Virus record (IMG/VR): IMGVR_UViG_3300045141_000178
Location: 1-23,271 of that record
Strand: one strand, 5' to 3'
Length of the DNA: 23,271 nucleotides
Origin: a virus
The notes below the pieces were generated by a model that worked only from the letters and a program-made list of their open reading frames with translations, did no database searches and was not told the origin of the DNA. The stretch's first letter is position 1, and the number at the start of each line of letters is the position of its first letter. The position numbers were made by a program, and so were the translations under genes. Positions 2,069-5,821 of this stretch are shown piece by piece.

Positions 2069-2584
2069 CTAGGCGGCGGGCGGACGAGGCGGGGCGGTGT
2101 CGTTGGCTGGCGCACGGCGTTGGCCTCCTGGCAGCGGATTGATCTCGTCGAGTTGCGCCGGCGAGAGATAGCGCGGCTTCGGCGGCGCCGGCGCGTCCCG
2201 CTCGGCGTACGGGCTTCGCATGTTGCCGAGGATCGTCTCGACGCAACGGCGGACATAGGCGCGCTCTTCGTCGGTAGGCTCGGAACGCGGCGGCGGGATC
2301 TCGGGCGGCGGTAGCGCCGGCAATGGCGGACGGTGCTCGCGCCACCACTCGGCGAGCCAGGCCGCGAGCTCGCCATAGGTCGGAAACCCCTTCACGGCGC
2401 GGGCGGCGCAATGCTCGAGCGACGCGGTCGTAAACGCGCCGTCGGGGAAGCGGTCCATCAGCAGCGGCACATAGGCCGCGAGCTTCATCTCAGCCTCTTG
2501 GCGGCTAATGCTGACGGCGGACAAGATGCCGAGCGATTGGCACCACTGCCGCACCACGGGCAGGTGGGTGGCTTGCTTGGGCAT
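2069..2584 (-). CDS. Putative replication partner protein (helicase-loader position)
   Basis: I chose the ATG at 2584, preceded by an AGGAG about 10 bases away, giving 171 aa; an ATG at 2488 would avoid the overlap but would cut into a conserved-looking segment (CQSLGILSAVSISRQEAEMK). The N-terminal 100 residues form a helical domain with MKLAAYVPLLMDRFPDGAFT and FPTYGELAAWLAEWW, a pattern I associate with small phage proteins encoded directly after an O-like initiator. The rest is a proline-rich linker with a short EERAYVRRCVETILGNM helix. It overlaps the upstream gene by 80 bp in a different frame. By analogy with lambda P it could load the helicase, but no Walker motif is present, so that role is only positional. 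Confidence 0.62.
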   Translation of the reverse strand: MPKQATHLPVVRQWCQSLGILSAVSISRQEAEMKLAAYVPLLMDRFPDGAFTTASLEHCAARAVKGFPTYGELAAWLAEWWREHRPPLPALPPPEIPPPRSEPTDEERAYVRRCVETILGNMRSPYAERDAPAPPKPRYLSPAQLDEINPLPGGQRRAPANDTAPPRPPAA

Positions 2585-3158
2585 GGTCGACGGTCTCCTG
2601 CAGGTCGTCGGTCGCACTGGCCGAGAAGCCGTTGCGGGCTTCGGCTTGCTTCGACTTCCGTGATCGAGATTGGCGGGGGGCGCCCTTGGGGGGGGATTCT
2701 ATATCTGCATCTGATCTAGGCATTGGCTCGCGTTCGTGTGAGCCTTCGGCTAGGCCGTTACCCTTCCCTGCAATGGGTTGGCCTTTGGGTTGGCCTTTGC
2801 GGTTTTTCCAACTTTTCAGCGCTGCGGCGCGGCCTATTACGGAAAGCTCCGCGTCCCGGATCATGCGCCGCGAGAGGATCGAACCCGCCTCGTTGCGCGA
2901 AAATACCCCCCTAGTTTCTAGCTCGGCCAGAAGGGGGGCAACTTGACGGGCATCTGCGAGACACATGCGGGCAACTTGCTTCGCTTCAGTCGTCTTGCCG
3001 CGTGACGGCGGCAGGATCAGATGACCTGGTGGATCGCACATCGACATGATGCAAAGCATCCGCATCCAAAGGCCCTGCGCGGCGAGCGAGCAGACGGACA
3101 AGGCTGGATCGGTCAGCCAGTCTTTCCACCAGAACTTGCCCCAGGGCAGGCCGCTCAT
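2505..3158 (-). CDS. Phage replication initiator-like protein
   Basis: The 217-aa protein opens with WGKFWWKDWLTDPALSVCS and continues AAQGLWMRMLCIMSMCDPPGHL, then a winged-helix-like stretch ending LLAELETRGVFSR and ILSRRMIRDAE. This is the N-terminal DNA-binding domain found in many O-like/DnaD-like phage replication proteins (W-x-DWL...D..L..CS..A.GLW...L). The second half is a hydrophilic linker (QPKGQP repeats, an SRSRKSKQ stretch) probably contacting other replication factors. Its start overlaps the methyltransferase stop as ATGA. A run of eight identical bases (C on the coding strand, 2688-2695) lies in the linker. The reading frame stays coding-like after it, with mostly G/C third positions, so I read it as intact. 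Confidence 0.78.
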   Translation of the reverse strand: MSGLPWGKFWWKDWLTDPALSVCSLAAQGLWMRMLCIMSMCDPPGHLILPPSRGKTTEAKQVARMCLADARQVAPLLAELETRGVFSRNEAGSILSRRMIRDAELSVIGRAAALKSWKNRKGQPKGQPIAGKGNGLAEGSHEREPMPRSDADIESPPKGAPRQSRSRKSKQAEARNGFSASATDDLQETVDHAQASHPPARGAAVVPIARHLVRRQH

Positions 3159-4393
3159 GGCGCGATCTCATTCCCCCAGGCGTCAAATCCCTCCGTTACC
3201 CGACGCGCGAATAGCTCACCGCGCGGCAGGGTCGGGAACAGGTCCTCGATCATCGCAGCGTAATACTCGGGCTTTTCGCTATGCTTCCCTCGTTCAAGCC
3301 GAACGCAGGCGGGGTATTGCTCGCCCGGCGTCGGCGCTGGAACGTTACCCCGGACGCCGAGCAACAGAATCTCGGCGTTGTCGCGGTTCCAGTAGCCGGT
3401 TCCGATCTCAGCCTTGTGCCAAACCCAGCAGGTTCGATACTCGAATCCCCAATGCTCAAGCAGGCCGAGCGCGCGCGAAAGCATCGGCCGCGTCGCCCAC
3501 ATAAACAGCGCGCAATCGGCGGCGGCTGGCAACTTGAGCGCTCGCAATTCGTCGAGCGTCATTGTCGGATAATGGTTGTCGGCCGCGCGATCCATGCCGG
3601 TCTCGCGCGAGTAAGGCTCAAATCGCCACGGCGGATCGGCGTAAATCACATTGTATAGACGCTCGCCCAGCGTTTCCGCAGCGGCGCGCGTTGCCTCGCC
3701 GAGCTTCTGTTCCTTCGCCGCGCGCTTGTATCGCTTGGCGGCGCCTTTCGCGGATACCTTCTCGCCCTGCTTGGCGCGGGCGATTAGCTCGCCCTGGCTT
3801 TCCTCCGGTAGCGCCGCGAGCGCGTCGAGTTCCTCGCCCTGGTCGAGCGACGTCCCGACCGCATCGGCGAGCGCCGGGATGTGCTTCGCGCGCGTTGTGT
3901 CACGCGCGACTGCGGTCCGGCTCTTGCCAGTCTTTGCGGCGGTATCGCTCACAAAGGTCCCAATTTGGGATTCTTCTGAGCGCTTACGTTTGCCGCGTCC
4001 GGCCCCTGGCGCGCCGCCATGCTTCGTCTCGGGATGGATCGCCTCGTATAGACGCTTACGCGCGGCGATGTGTATCGCGCGCTCGGCCGGCGAGAGTTCG
4101 CCCCGGATCAAGTTCTCGTCGATCTCGACCAGCTTTGCCTGATCAGCGTCGGCGAATGCTACGACGTCGGATGCGATGGTCTCCCACTTGAGCCGCTTTG
4201 CCGCCTCAAGACGATGTGCCCCGACGACGAGTTGCGGCGTCGCCTGCCCGTTCGGATAAGTGATGCTGATCGGATGGATCAGCCCGCGCGTTGCCATACT
4301 TTCGGTCAGTTCGGTGATCAAAGAGTCGCGGAGCGGCCGAAGCCGCTCCCCGATCATGATCGCCTTAACCAACACATCGCGGACGGCGGTCAC
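3155..4393 (-). CDS. ParB-domain / MT-A70 adenine-N6 DNA methyltransferase fusion
   Basis: This 412-aa protein joins two domains. Residues 10-110 are a ParB/Srx-type N-terminal domain with the hallmark GAHRLEAAKRL at 58-68 and IDENLIR at 91-97. Residues 110-235 form a charged, helical ParB-like middle region (SDTAAKTGKSRTAVARD reads as a helix-turn-helix). Residues 245-412 are an MT-A70 methyltransferase: DPPW at 253-256 (catalytic), YPTM at 275-278, FMWAT at 297-301, a GTGYWNRDNAEILLLG segment, HSEKPE at 371-376 and ELFAR at 393-397. MT-A70 enzymes transfer a methyl group from S-adenosylmethionine to the N6 of adenine. It starts at a GTG overlapping the upstream ParB-like gene (GTGA). Likely roles are protecting phage DNA from restriction or marking replication origins; target sequence unknown. 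Related fusions occur in other phages. Confidence 0.93.
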   Translation of the reverse strand: MTAVRDVLVKAIMIGERLRPLRDSLITELTESMATRGLIHPISITYPNGQATPQLVVGAHRLEAAKRLKWETIASDVVAFADADQAKLVEIDENLIRGELSPAERAIHIAARKRLYEAIHPETKHGGAPGAGRGKRKRSEESQIGTFVSDTAAKTGKSRTAVARDTTRAKHIPALADAVGTSLDQGEELDALAALPEESQGELIARAKQGEKVSAKGAAKRYKRAAKEQKLGEATRAAAETLGERLYNVIYADPPWRFEPYSRETGMDRAADNHYPTMTLDELRALKLPAAADCALFMWATRPMLSRALGLLEHWGFEYRTCWVWHKAEIGTGYWNRDNAEILLLGVRGNVPAPTPGEQYPACVRLERGKHSEKPEYYAAMIEDLFPTLPRGELFARRVTEGFDAWGNEIAP

Positions 4394-5298
4394 CGCGCGA
4401 TCTCGGGCATAGGATCACCGGGCGTCCACTTCATTTGCGAGATCGTCCCGCGCTTGCCGGTAACAAAGAGATTCCAAGCGGTGACGATGAGCGCGCAGCG
4501 ATTGAGATCATGCACACGTCCCATCGCATCGGCGCGGATGCGAGCGATGGCCTGCTCCAAGAGGCCGATGGATTTGTATCGTCCGCCATGCTTGCCATCG
4601 GCCCATGCGGTCGCGAATTCCTCCGACTTCGCCCGGTTCGCTTGCGCGAAAAGATACAAGAGCGCGGTCACAAGAGTCATGGGCTGGCGGGTCGTCCGAT
4701 AGATGGCGCCGGCTTGCGACACATAATCCGGAAGGGTCGGGAATTCATCGCGGATTAACTGCAACGCCTCGTCGGGCTCGACGGCATTGCGGCTTGTCCG
4801 ATCGGCAGAGCTTAGGTTCCGGACCCAGCGCGCCGCGCCCGATAGAACGTTCGCGTTCGGATAACCGGCGATGGTCAGGACGTCGCCGCCGGATCGCGGC
4901 TTGCCCTGGTCGATGCGGTCGAATAGTTCATCCTTGATCCCGAATACGACGTGCGTCGTGAACGGCTTTCCGGACCGGACGCAGGCGCGAAGCCGGTTCT
5001 GTCCGTCGCGAAGCAATCCCCTATCGGAGAACTTGAGATTGTCGCCGGTCAGGCCCCAGGTCCCCGCGCCCATATGGCGGGAGAACCGGGAGATCGATTT
5101 CGGTTTCATGCTCCGGTTGTGGAGGTTGTAAGTATCGAGAACCCAGGCCGCCACCTTGGCGGTAATCCGGATCACGCGAGAATTGCGCGGCGGCTCGGCG
5201 ATATATTTCATTATCCGCGCTTTGATCTCGTCGTCCGAAAGGCCGCTCGGGATCGTCTCGTCGTTGTTGACTATGGTGCGGACGCTAGCGCTTGCCAT
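4390..5298 (-). CDS. ParB-superfamily phage protein
   Basis: The 302-aa protein has the layout of a recurrent phage/actinobacterial/alphaproteobacterial ParB-like family. A segment with AAWVLDTYNLHNRSMKP is followed by ISRFSRHMGAGTWGLTGDNL, then the signature LLRDGQNRLRACVRSGKPF at about 114-132, the diverged counterpart of the ParB box (G-[HN]R..A). Next come an FDRIDQGKPRSGGDVL motif and an all-helical C-terminal half. It is coupled to the next gene (stop overlaps GTG), which also begins with a ParB domain, so two ParB-type modules are encoded in tandem. A GGGGA lies 7 bases before the ATG. Function is not established for this family; DNA binding or an anti-restriction role is plausible. 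There is no ParA partner here, which argues against plasmid-type partition. Confidence 0.8.
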   Translation of the reverse strand: MASASVRTIVNNDETIPSGLSDDEIKARIMKYIAEPPRNSRVIRITAKVAAWVLDTYNLHNRSMKPKSISRFSRHMGAGTWGLTGDNLKFSDRGLLRDGQNRLRACVRSGKPFTTHVVFGIKDELFDRIDQGKPRSGGDVLTIAGYPNANVLSGAARWVRNLSSADRTSRNAVEPDEALQLIRDEFPTLPDYVSQAGAIYRTTRQPMTLVTALLYLFAQANRAKSEEFATAWADGKHGGRYKSIGLLEQAIARIRADAMGRVHDLNRCALIVTAWNLFVTGKRGTISQMKWTPGDPMPEIAR

Positions 5299-5383: not shown

Positions 5384-5821
5384 TTATGCTGCGATCCTCC
5401 CCCGAAGCGGCACGCCGCCGGCGGTAAGCGCGTCGAGAACGCCGACGACCGACGTGCAGACCGCAATCCGCATGCCGGCCCGTTCTAGGCGCGGGAACAC
5501 CTCGCGCTGCCCCTCGACGTAGCGCGGTGAGCCGCGCCGGGTTCGCACCCAGCGCGCAATGCTCAATCCCTCGCCCGGCCGCTTTAGCTCGATGCCGAAT
5601 AGCTCGTGGTGTAGTACGAGAATATCAGGCCAATTCCGTTTCAGGCCGAGCCGCGCGAGCTTGACCGCCCACCGCGCCGGCAATGGCACATGCCCAGCCG
5701 GAAACGTCGTCCATTCAGCCGGCGGCATCAGTAGACGGTCGAGCGCGTCGGCGACCGCGAGATGGAGATCGTCCTCGGGGACAATAGGGGCGGTAAGCCG
5801 AAACCGAGGGCGCGGCGCCAT
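5384..5821 (-). CDS. VRR-NUC domain nuclease
   Basis: The 145-aa protein has the compact VRR-NUC fold of the PD-(D/E)xK superfamily: an N-terminal helix with EDDLHLAVADAL, the GLKRNWPDILV strand carrying Asp66, the FGIELKRPG strand carrying Glu78 and Lys80, and the YVEGQREVFPRLERAG helix with Gln105, followed by a final strand AVCTSVVGVLDAL. All expected catalytic residues are present and the length is typical of the stand-alone phage form. Such enzymes cleave branched DNA or assist replication and recombination. It lies 12 bp after the HTH gene and 85 bp before the ParB-like gene in the leftward operon. The Bet recombinase of this phage is in the other operon with no exonuclease beside it, so this nuclease is a possible functional partner. 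Confidence 0.9.
   Translation of the reverse strand: MAPRPRFRLTAPIVPEDDLHLAVADALDRLLMPPAEWTTFPAGHVPLPARWAVKLARLGLKRNWPDILVLHHELFGIELKRPGEGLSIARWVRTRRGSPRYVEGQREVFPRLERAGMRIAVCTSVVGVLDALTAGGVPLRGRIAA

What the first reader, a model, noticed from the sequence alone, without database searches (positions are those of the whole stretch)
3155..5298. Two consecutive ParB-type modules, one fused to an MT-A70 adenine methyltransferase
A stand-alone ParB-like protein and a ParB/MT-A70 fusion are translationally coupled in an early operon with a VRR-NUC nuclease and replication proteins. No ParA is present, so partition is unlikely. A ParB fold could load the methyltransferase along phage DNA from a nucleation site, modifying it processively against restriction. 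Individual fusions are known, but this tandem is worth a functional look.
Basis: partly seen in the sequence, partly recalled or inferred. Interest (0 to 1): 0.58.

Follow-up and report, generated by a model that had tools for sequence, protein, structure and literature searches.

The report
Paired ParB-fold proteins, one an adenine methyltransferase
A bacterial virus carries two overlapping genes for DNA-clamp-like (ParB-fold) proteins, one joined to an adenine-methylating enzyme; such fusions are already known, but the pairing with a second, very divergent ParB-fold protein recurs in many different viruses and looks like a reusable two-gene cassette.

Summary
P0001 (window 3155-4393, minus) is ParB N-domain + HTH + MT-A70 methyltransferase, with NTP-pocket and DPPW residues intact. 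P0002 (4390-5298, minus) matches no Pfam or NCBIfam model, only PHROG 5931 (function unknown). Its first domain is nevertheless a divergent ParB/sulfiredoxin fold: profile-profile score 54.7, against at most 17.7 in 50 shuffled controls. The genes overlap by 4 nt, and P0001 overlaps the next gene by 4 nt.

ParB-methyltransferase fusions in phages, and the idea that ParB steers DNA modification, are already in print. What I did not find in print is the cassette: relatives of P0002 stand directly upstream of a ParB gene, a ParB/MT-A70 fusion or an MT-A70 gene in 16 of 68 usable viral loci, in several lineages. No ParA was found in 23 such records, many of them fragments, and no parS site in the window, so partition is unlikely.

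Best reading: an NTP-gated, ParB-guided N6-adenine methyltransferase acting on phage DNA, with P0002 as accessory ParB-fold subunit or regulator. DNA rather than RNA as substrate, the purpose (anti-restriction or replication/packaging control), and any P0001-P0002 contact are inferred. New variant of a known kind.

The parts
4390..5298 (-). P0002, 302 aa, PHROG 5931 family; divergent ParB/sulfiredoxin-fold protein with a helical C-terminal domain
4894..5190 (-). P0002 residues 37-135: divergent ParB-fold domain
   Evidence: hhalign against ParB family prob 96.6, score 54.7; 50 shuffled controls at most 17.7; VIA-align Z 5.8 to Caulobacter ParB, 87 residues, 3.2 A
4993..5007 (-). P0002 DGQNR (98-102), counterpart of ParB box II (P motif)
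   Evidence: alignment; G99, Q100, R102 in 56 of 56, but this motif was the scan pattern, so its conservation is partly by selection
3155..4393 (-). P0001, 412 aa, ParB N-domain + HTH + MT-A70 adenine methyltransferase
4037..4393 (-). P0001 residues 1-119: ParB NTP-binding domain; GAHR box 58-61 and ENLIR box 93-97
   Evidence: G58, R61, N94 in 41 of 41 and R97 in 40 of 41 aligned fusions, P0001 included; Noc match
3770..3976 (-). P0001 residues 140-208: helical HTH region as in Noc/KorB
   Evidence: AlphaFold2 helices at 147-155, 159-171, 186-193, 197-208; Noc alignment of 225-231 columns
3161..3661 (-). P0001 residues 245-411: MT-A70 domain
   Evidence: Pfam E 6.5e-22; METTL3 Foldseek E 7.5e-11; PADLOC MTase_II E 4.8e-48
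3626..3637 (-). DPPW catalytic motif (residues 253-256)
   Evidence: D253 and W256 in 41 of 41; position 255 is P in 21, E in 18, A in 2
4390..4393 (-). GTGA overlap: P0002 stop and P0001 start
3155..3158 (-). ATGA overlap: P0001 stop and start of the next gene
2505..3158 (-). next gene of the operon, 217 aa, no informative family match (replication role only by context)
5384..5821 (-). upstream gene, 145 aa, PD-(D/E)xK/VRR-NUC-like by residue motif only (motif recalled)
   Evidence: no Pfam hit; PHROG 824 unknown function E 3.4e-5

Best explanation
The pair is a phage DNA-modification cassette. P0001 is a ParB-guided N6-adenine methyltransferase: its ParB N-domain and HTH bind DNA and an NTP as in Noc/ParB, and the MT-A70 domain, carried on a long helix in place of ParB's usual C-terminal dimerisation domain, methylates adenines in the phage DNA it is held on. 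P0002 is a second, highly divergent ParB-fold protein made in step with it, acting as accessory subunit or regulator (loading, gating or expression control). Shown by sequence and structure comparison: the domain identities, the retained NTP-pocket and catalytic residues, the 4-nt overlaps, the recurrent adjacency of the two genes. Inferred: DNA as substrate, action in cis, the contact between the two proteins, and protection from restriction or marking for replication/packaging as the purpose.
For: Domain; models and fold matches 64, 67, 69, 70, 73. P0002 vs ParB profile: prob 96.6, score 54.7; controls: 50 column-shuffled ParB profiles at most 17.7, reversed 13.5, MT-A70 11.0. ParB pocket residues G58, R61, N94 kept in 41 of 41 aligned fusions, none of them in the scan patterns. 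P0002-family genes: 16 of 68 usable non-redundant viral loci have a ParB (7), ParB-MT-A70 (6) or MT-A70 (3) gene directly downstream; 14 of 39 adjacent ORFs against 3 of 606 other ORFs in the same loci. From the other side: P0002 relative directly upstream of 8 of 30 viral ParB-MT-A70 genes against 1 of 37 other MT-A70 genes (Fisher p 0.008). The quick tree needs several separate gains or losses of the pairing. ParB-only partners in phages of other hosts: Microcystis Mvi-Yong1342-1 and Pseudomonas phiAH14a. Another phage MT-A70 enzyme was shown to methylate GATC in DNA (PMC7556043, passages). PADLOC type II MTase model E 4.8e-48.
Against: 52 of 68 P0002-family loci have neither partner next door, and 22 of 30 viral ParB-MT-A70 genes lack P0002 directly upstream, so neither strictly needs the other. 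Loci are related by descent, so the Fisher values overstate independence; tree support is weak. Foldseek E for P0002 against ParB is only 0.12 and VIA-align Z 5.8 is below 8. A phage MT-A70 enzyme with an upstream-encoded partner has been reported to prefer 16S rRNA (PMC10810198, passages). PMC12704722 reports that 17 of 28 tested ParB-fold proteins bound no NTP. No binding site was found.
Confidence: 0.5

Rival explanations
1. Regulatory/replication switch: P0002 and the ParB module form an NTP-dependent DNA-bound switch that controls early replication or transcription; the MT-A70 domain is an optional add-on that marks phage DNA for timing rather than for protection.
For: P0002 relatives pair with ParB genes that lack any methyltransferase in 7 of 68 loci and, in two named phages, the pair stands directly before a gene annotated 'replication protein' (Microcystis and Pseudomonas phages). 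The window genes sit beside the CI/Cro-like immunity genes. Other downstream neighbours in the set include ERF, RadC, DNA polymerase A and antirepressor domains.
Against: Methyltransferase residues are conserved in the fusions, and some P0002 relatives stand before MT-A70 genes with no ParB domain found (3 of 68). Context is loose in most loci.
Confidence: 0.25
2. RNA-methylating holoenzyme: MT-A70 plus accessory protein methylates rRNA or mRNA, as reported for a prophage enzyme of E. coli.
For: PMC10810198 (abstract and passages): an MT-A70 enzyme plus the product of the gene just upstream preferred 16S rRNA. The nearest solved relative by sequence and fold is METTL3.
Against: In P0001 the targeting module is a ParB/HTH unit, a DNA-binding architecture. 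Tetrahymena MTA1, titled a DNA methyltransferase, is also a close match. The accessory proteins there are described as winged-HTH, not ParB-fold, and 'parb' does not occur in that paper's main text. Another phage MT-A70 was shown to act on DNA.
Confidence: 0.12
3. Nuclease: the ParB domains nick DNA, with the methyltransferase protecting phage DNA, a compact restriction-like unit.
For: PMC5512222 (passages) cites a Bacillus cereus ParB-methylase fusion with nonspecific nicking activity (primary paper not held).
Against: No metal site was tested here; the conserved residues match the NTP pocket of ParB/Noc.
Confidence: 0.06
4. Plasmid-like partition of the prophage.
For: ParB fold in both proteins.
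Against: Integrase in the window, no ParA in any of 23 records (many are fragments), no parS-like site.
Confidence: 0.03

Closest known systems
ParB-methyltransferase fusions and the ParB-Tls locus of temperate phages (Paracoccus phages, PMC6536676; citing Iyer et al. 2013)
   Same: ParB N-terminal domain fused to an m6A/m4C methyltransferase in temperate phages of Alphaproteobacteria; proposed steering of DNA modification by ParB
   Different: The Paracoccus fusions all lie upstream of the terminase genes; this one lies between immunity-type genes and genes of unassigned function, and has a second divergent ParB-fold gene overlapping it. Which methyltransferase domain those fusions carry was not told in the passages I saw.
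ParB-CTPase-fold survey of Kaljevic et al. 2025 (PMC12704722)
   Same: Orphan ParB folds on mobile elements fused to methyltransferases, MT-A70 among the listed partners
   Different: There MT-A70 fusions are highlighted for archaea against bacteria. The survey used Pfam PF02195 (version .22) at its gathering score, which in the version searched here (.25) neither P0002 (no match) nor P0001 (23.3 against 26.3 bits) passes
PHROG 21315 and PHROG 5931
   Same: P0001 matches 21315 over nearly its whole length, P0002 matches 5931; 41 of 41 aligned fusions match 21315
   Different: Both are listed there as 'unknown function'; neither their pairing nor the ParB fold of 5931 is annotated
Noc/ParB CTPase clamps
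   Same: N-domain and HTH order and pocket motifs
   Different: C-terminal dimerisation domain replaced by MT-A70; no ParA; nucleotide not known
MT-A70 methyltransferases of phages (Serratia BZS1 p32, GATC in DNA, PMC7556043; E. coli prophage enzyme with rRNA preference, PMC10810198)
   Same: MT-A70 family; a partner gene directly upstream in the second case
   Different: No ParB domain was mentioned for those enzymes in the passages I saw; the partner in the second is described as winged HTH
DndB / DGQHR proteins
   Same: A DGQ[HN]R motif (motif name recalled) in a divergent ParB-type protein tied to DNA modification
   Different: No Pfam DndB match in 56 members of the P0002 family at E 0.1; no direct comparison made

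Membership tests
ParB-CTPase fold (ParB/Noc/Srx superfamily), P0001 | ParB N-domain with box motifs, followed by HTH | tested here: met
   Pfam sub-threshold, NCBIfam Noc E 3.4e-10, Noc fold match E 7.2e-10, G58/R61/N94 in 41 of 41
ParB-CTPase fold, P0002 | ParB/Srx fold of the N-domain | tested here: met
   hhalign prob 96.6 with controls near zero; fold searches consistent but weak
ParB-CTPase fold | NTP binding and hydrolysis, clamp closure | not testable with these tools
   needs purified protein
Canonical ParB | C-terminal dimerisation domain | tested here: not met
   P0001 carries a long helix (215-242) and MT-A70 instead
ParABS partition system | ParA ATPase gene | tested here: not met
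   PF13614 in 0 of 23 records, controls 14 of 14; records may be fragments
ParABS partition system | parS site | tested here: not met
   0 matches with up to 3 mismatches in the window (consensus recalled); a divergent site is not excluded
MT-A70 methyltransferase family | domain over cut-off and DPPW-type motif | tested here: met
   78.7 bits against 23.9; D253, W256 in 41 of 41
MT-A70 methyltransferase family | adenine N6 methylation, DNA or RNA | not testable with these tools
   needs modification calling or assay
ParB-Tls locus fusions | fusion gene beside the terminase genes | tested here: inconclusive
   no terminase domain among 32 window ORFs scanned, but the window is a fragment without head genes; Sf6-type terminase small subunits match 6 of 34 neighbour proteins of tandem relatives
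Type II restriction-modification | cognate restriction endonuclease next to the methyltransferase | tested here: inconclusive
   neighbour 5384-5821 is nuclease-like by motif only; no family match

The most novel reading that the evidence does not exclude
P0002 and the ParB half of P0001 form a mixed, NTP-gated DNA clamp, that is, two different ParB folds working as one switch, that loads at a phage site and slides, so that the attached MT-A70 domain methylates the phage genome in cis. PHROG 5931 would then be a widespread, unrecognised partner class of phage ParB proteins, with the methyltransferase as one of several payloads.
Probability: 0.12. Interest if true: 0.75.

Novelty: new variant of a known kind. 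Interest (0 to 1): 0.45.

Why it matters
ParB clamps are the model for CTP-switched sliding on DNA. If a phage uses one, with a second ParB-fold partner, to place a methyltransferase on its own DNA, it would be a way of telling self from host DNA by loading rather than by motif alone. At the least, it assigns a fold and a recurring partner to PHROG 5931, a phage family listed without function, and gives a small, expressible two-gene unit on which the question can be tested.

Tried and rejected
Single-protein scans of viral contigs were nearly blind: P0001 found 1 locus, P0002 none. A profile of mixed ParB proteins had no stretch conserved enough to scan with (error). The phage collection holds no full-length relative of P0001: 355 records match, none over 80% of the query. 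ParB relatives in named phages: 14 records. I opened the loci of four of these from Alphaproteobacteria (Thiobacimonas P1, Rhizobium RR1-B, Sinorhizobium StopSmel, Ochrobactrum POA1180), the Microcystis one and a Bradyrhizobium ParB-MT-A70 phage. Among these six only the Microcystis locus has a P0002 relative (HMM scan).

Inverted and direct repeats in the window gave no convincing nucleation site; the pairs are short and lie mostly in coding DNA. parS and KorB consensus scans were empty or at chance.

Partition was considered and set aside. PADLOC gives P0002 no match. P0002's helical C-terminal domain (residues 137-292) has no clear match: the VIA rows for it are helical pieces of pyruvate carboxylase and dynein at Z under 5; absence is not evidence of a new fold.

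Rows dropped before counts: one search used the 80 loci; L059 had no match to the P0002 HMM, 4 were duplicates by sequence, and 7 more had under 700 nt downstream, leaving 68. The MT-A70 side left out duplicates and genes starting within 1000 nt of the locus start, leaving 67 viral and 65 genome-contig genes; in the latter, 1 of 18 fusions and 0 of 47 others had P0002 upstream. Three of the eight viral fusions with P0002 (L140, L143, L145) are the same contigs as L065, L076, L061 found from the P0002 side. The tree left out loci L211 and above, short domains and duplicates. The pattern was [LM]xDGQ[HN]R[LC]xA and those lie in the MT-A70 domain, so conservation of exactly those residues is partly by selection; N58, N61, R62, G132, R135 of P0002 and the ParB boxes of P0001 were not in the patterns.

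Literature searches for the pairing; no listed title or abstract described a PHROG 5931-type protein beside a ParB/MT-A70 fusion, within the open-licence library only. Iyer et al. 2013 is known to me here only through the citing paper (not held).
Full report
What is there. The window is a virus record of 23,271 bases, linear, possibly a fragment. On the minus strand two genes overlap by four bases (GTGA): P0002 (4390-5298) and P0001 (3155-4393); P0001 overlaps the next gene (2505-3158) by four bases as well (ATGA). No clear ribosome-binding site precedes P0001 by eye, which fits translational coupling (inference). To the right lie Cro/YdaS-like and CI-like regulators, Gp157, a RecT/Bet annealing protein, a tyrosine integrase and, further on, Mu-type tail proteins (Gp45, Gp46, baseplate J, Gp48): a temperate myovirus-like phage. 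The best matches of the fusion in genome contigs lie mainly in Alphaproteobacteria, by the record titles.

P0001. Residues 1-119 are a ParB N-domain, about 140-208 a Noc-like HTH region, 215-242 a long helix, 245-411 an MT-A70 domain. The model matches METTL3 (E 7.5e-11) and Noc (E 7.2e-10 over 225-231 columns). In the alignment of 41 fusions G58, R61 and N94 are invariant and R97 is kept in 40; D253 and W256 of the DPPW motif are invariant, though position 255 is often E. R61 corresponds by alignment to the box II arginine whose mutation abolished nucleotide binding in other ParB-fold proteins (PMC12704722, passages). P0001 is thus a plausible NTP-binding, DNA-binding methyltransferase. PHROG 21315 covers it nearly end to end and matches 41 of 41 fusions: the fusion family is catalogued, without function.

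P0002. No Pfam or NCBIfam family matches, nor does Pfam give a consistent match to its 56-member alignment (each of 10 weak families hits one member). The profile of its N-domain aligns with the ParB family at probability 96.6 and score 54.7; 50 column-shuffled ParB profiles reach at most 17.7, the reversed profile 13.5, the MT-A70 family 11.0, and the C-terminal domain gives nothing. One relative (L084) is hit by the ParB HMM itself, E 8.6e-7. The AlphaFold2 model is confident (pLDDT 92.4). Fold comparison puts ParB, KorB, Noc and sulfiredoxin at the top, but with modest numbers (Foldseek E 0.12 at best; VIA-align Z 5.8, 87 residues, 3.2 A). I conclude that residues 37-135 are a divergent ParB/Srx fold, followed by a helical domain of unknown relation.

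Is the pairing more than chance? From the P0002 side, 16 of 68 usable non-redundant viral loci have a ParB (7), ParB-MT-A70 (6) or MT-A70 (3) gene directly downstream. Counted as ORFs of at least 100 aa, 14 of 39 adjacent ones carry such a domain against 3 of 606 others in the same loci. From the methyltransferase side, 8 of 30 viral ParB-MT-A70 genes have P0002 directly upstream, against 1 of 37 MT-A70 genes without ParB (p 0.008); in genome contigs 1 of 18 and 0 of 47. In 397 genomes of the order of locus L178's genome, 3 carry a P0002 relative at E 1e-20; 2 of these 3 are directly followed by ParB, once with MT-A70 (the Bosea locus already known) and once without. Two named phages of other hosts, Microcystis Mvi-Yong1342-1 and Pseudomonas phiAH14a, have P0002 relative, ParB gene and 'replication protein' in a row. 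A quick tree of 116 MT-A70 domains needs 9 changes of the P0002 label; for the group with both ParB and P0002 it needs 6, of which well-supported branches force 3. The label 'ParB or other N-terminus' changes 23 times, so the N-terminal targeting module is often swapped; support in this tree is low. Against a strict partnership: 52 of 68 P0002 loci and 22 of 30 viral fusions stand without the other.

How it most likely works. ParB/Noc proteins bind a site, close as clamps on NTP binding and slide (established for ParB; starts of the abstracts of PMC7053999 and PMC8367383 seen). In P0001 the usual dimerisation domain is replaced by MT-A70, so the simplest reading is that the ParB part places the methyltransferase on phage DNA. 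A phage MT-A70 enzyme was shown to methylate GATC in DNA (PMC7556043, passages), and PADLOC's type II methyltransferase model matches at E 4.8e-48. P0002, made in the same operon and with its own retained arginines (R102, R135 in 56 of 56; R102 lies in the scan pattern, R135 does not), would be an accessory subunit or regulator. The substrate is not settled: a prophage MT-A70 of E. coli was reported to prefer 16S rRNA when joined by the protein of the gene upstream (PMC10810198, passages). The ParB domain might also nick DNA, as cited for a Bacillus cereus ParB-methylase (PMC5512222, passages). Partition is unlikely: no ParA in 23 records, 14 of 14 controls positive, an integrase in the window, no parS.

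What is known. ParB-methyltransferase fusions in phages are in print: 36 in Paracoccus phages, with the steering idea attributed to Iyer et al. 2013 (PMC6536676, passages), and the fold-wide survey of December 2025 (PMC12704722, abstract, passages and two sections). What I did not find in the searched library is the ParB fold of PHROG 5931 or its cassette with ParB and ParB-MT-A70. Verdict: a real feature, a new variant of a known kind, of moderate interest, with a cheap decisive test.

Noticed in passing
L078:4259-6616: Three consecutive overlapping ParB-fold genes: ParB (240 aa), P0002 relative (267 aa), ParB (280 aa).
   Followed up: no
L033:3098-3697: The gene picked as downstream neighbour of a P0002 relative matches the Mom DNA-modification family (E 1.6e-7), about 260 nt away: another link of this family to DNA modification.
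   Followed up: partly
window:10228-11082: 284-aa minus-strand gene without Pfam match in the stretch of lowest GC (0.565 against 0.595-0.703 in the other 1-kb steps); begins with a CxxC...H pattern like an HNH/zinc protein; probably a late-acquired accessory gene.
   Followed up: no
window:15558-15830: A 90-aa minus-strand ORF that looks like an OmpR-type winged-helix output domain standing alone; the Pfam Trans_reg_C match (E 1.7e-8) to one of 32 window ORFs is probably this one (not checked singly).
   Followed up: no
L022:1769-2797, L125:1765-2718 and many others: Phage MT-A70 proteins often carry a different N-terminal region instead of ParB (56 of 116 non-redundant domains were classed 'other'), so targeting modules seem to be swapped often.
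   Followed up: partly
G023:C6:86941-87186: A weak match (E 4.4e-11) of the P0002 profile, limited to the ParB-fold part, inside a 407-aa frame elsewhere in the genome that holds L178.
   Followed up: no
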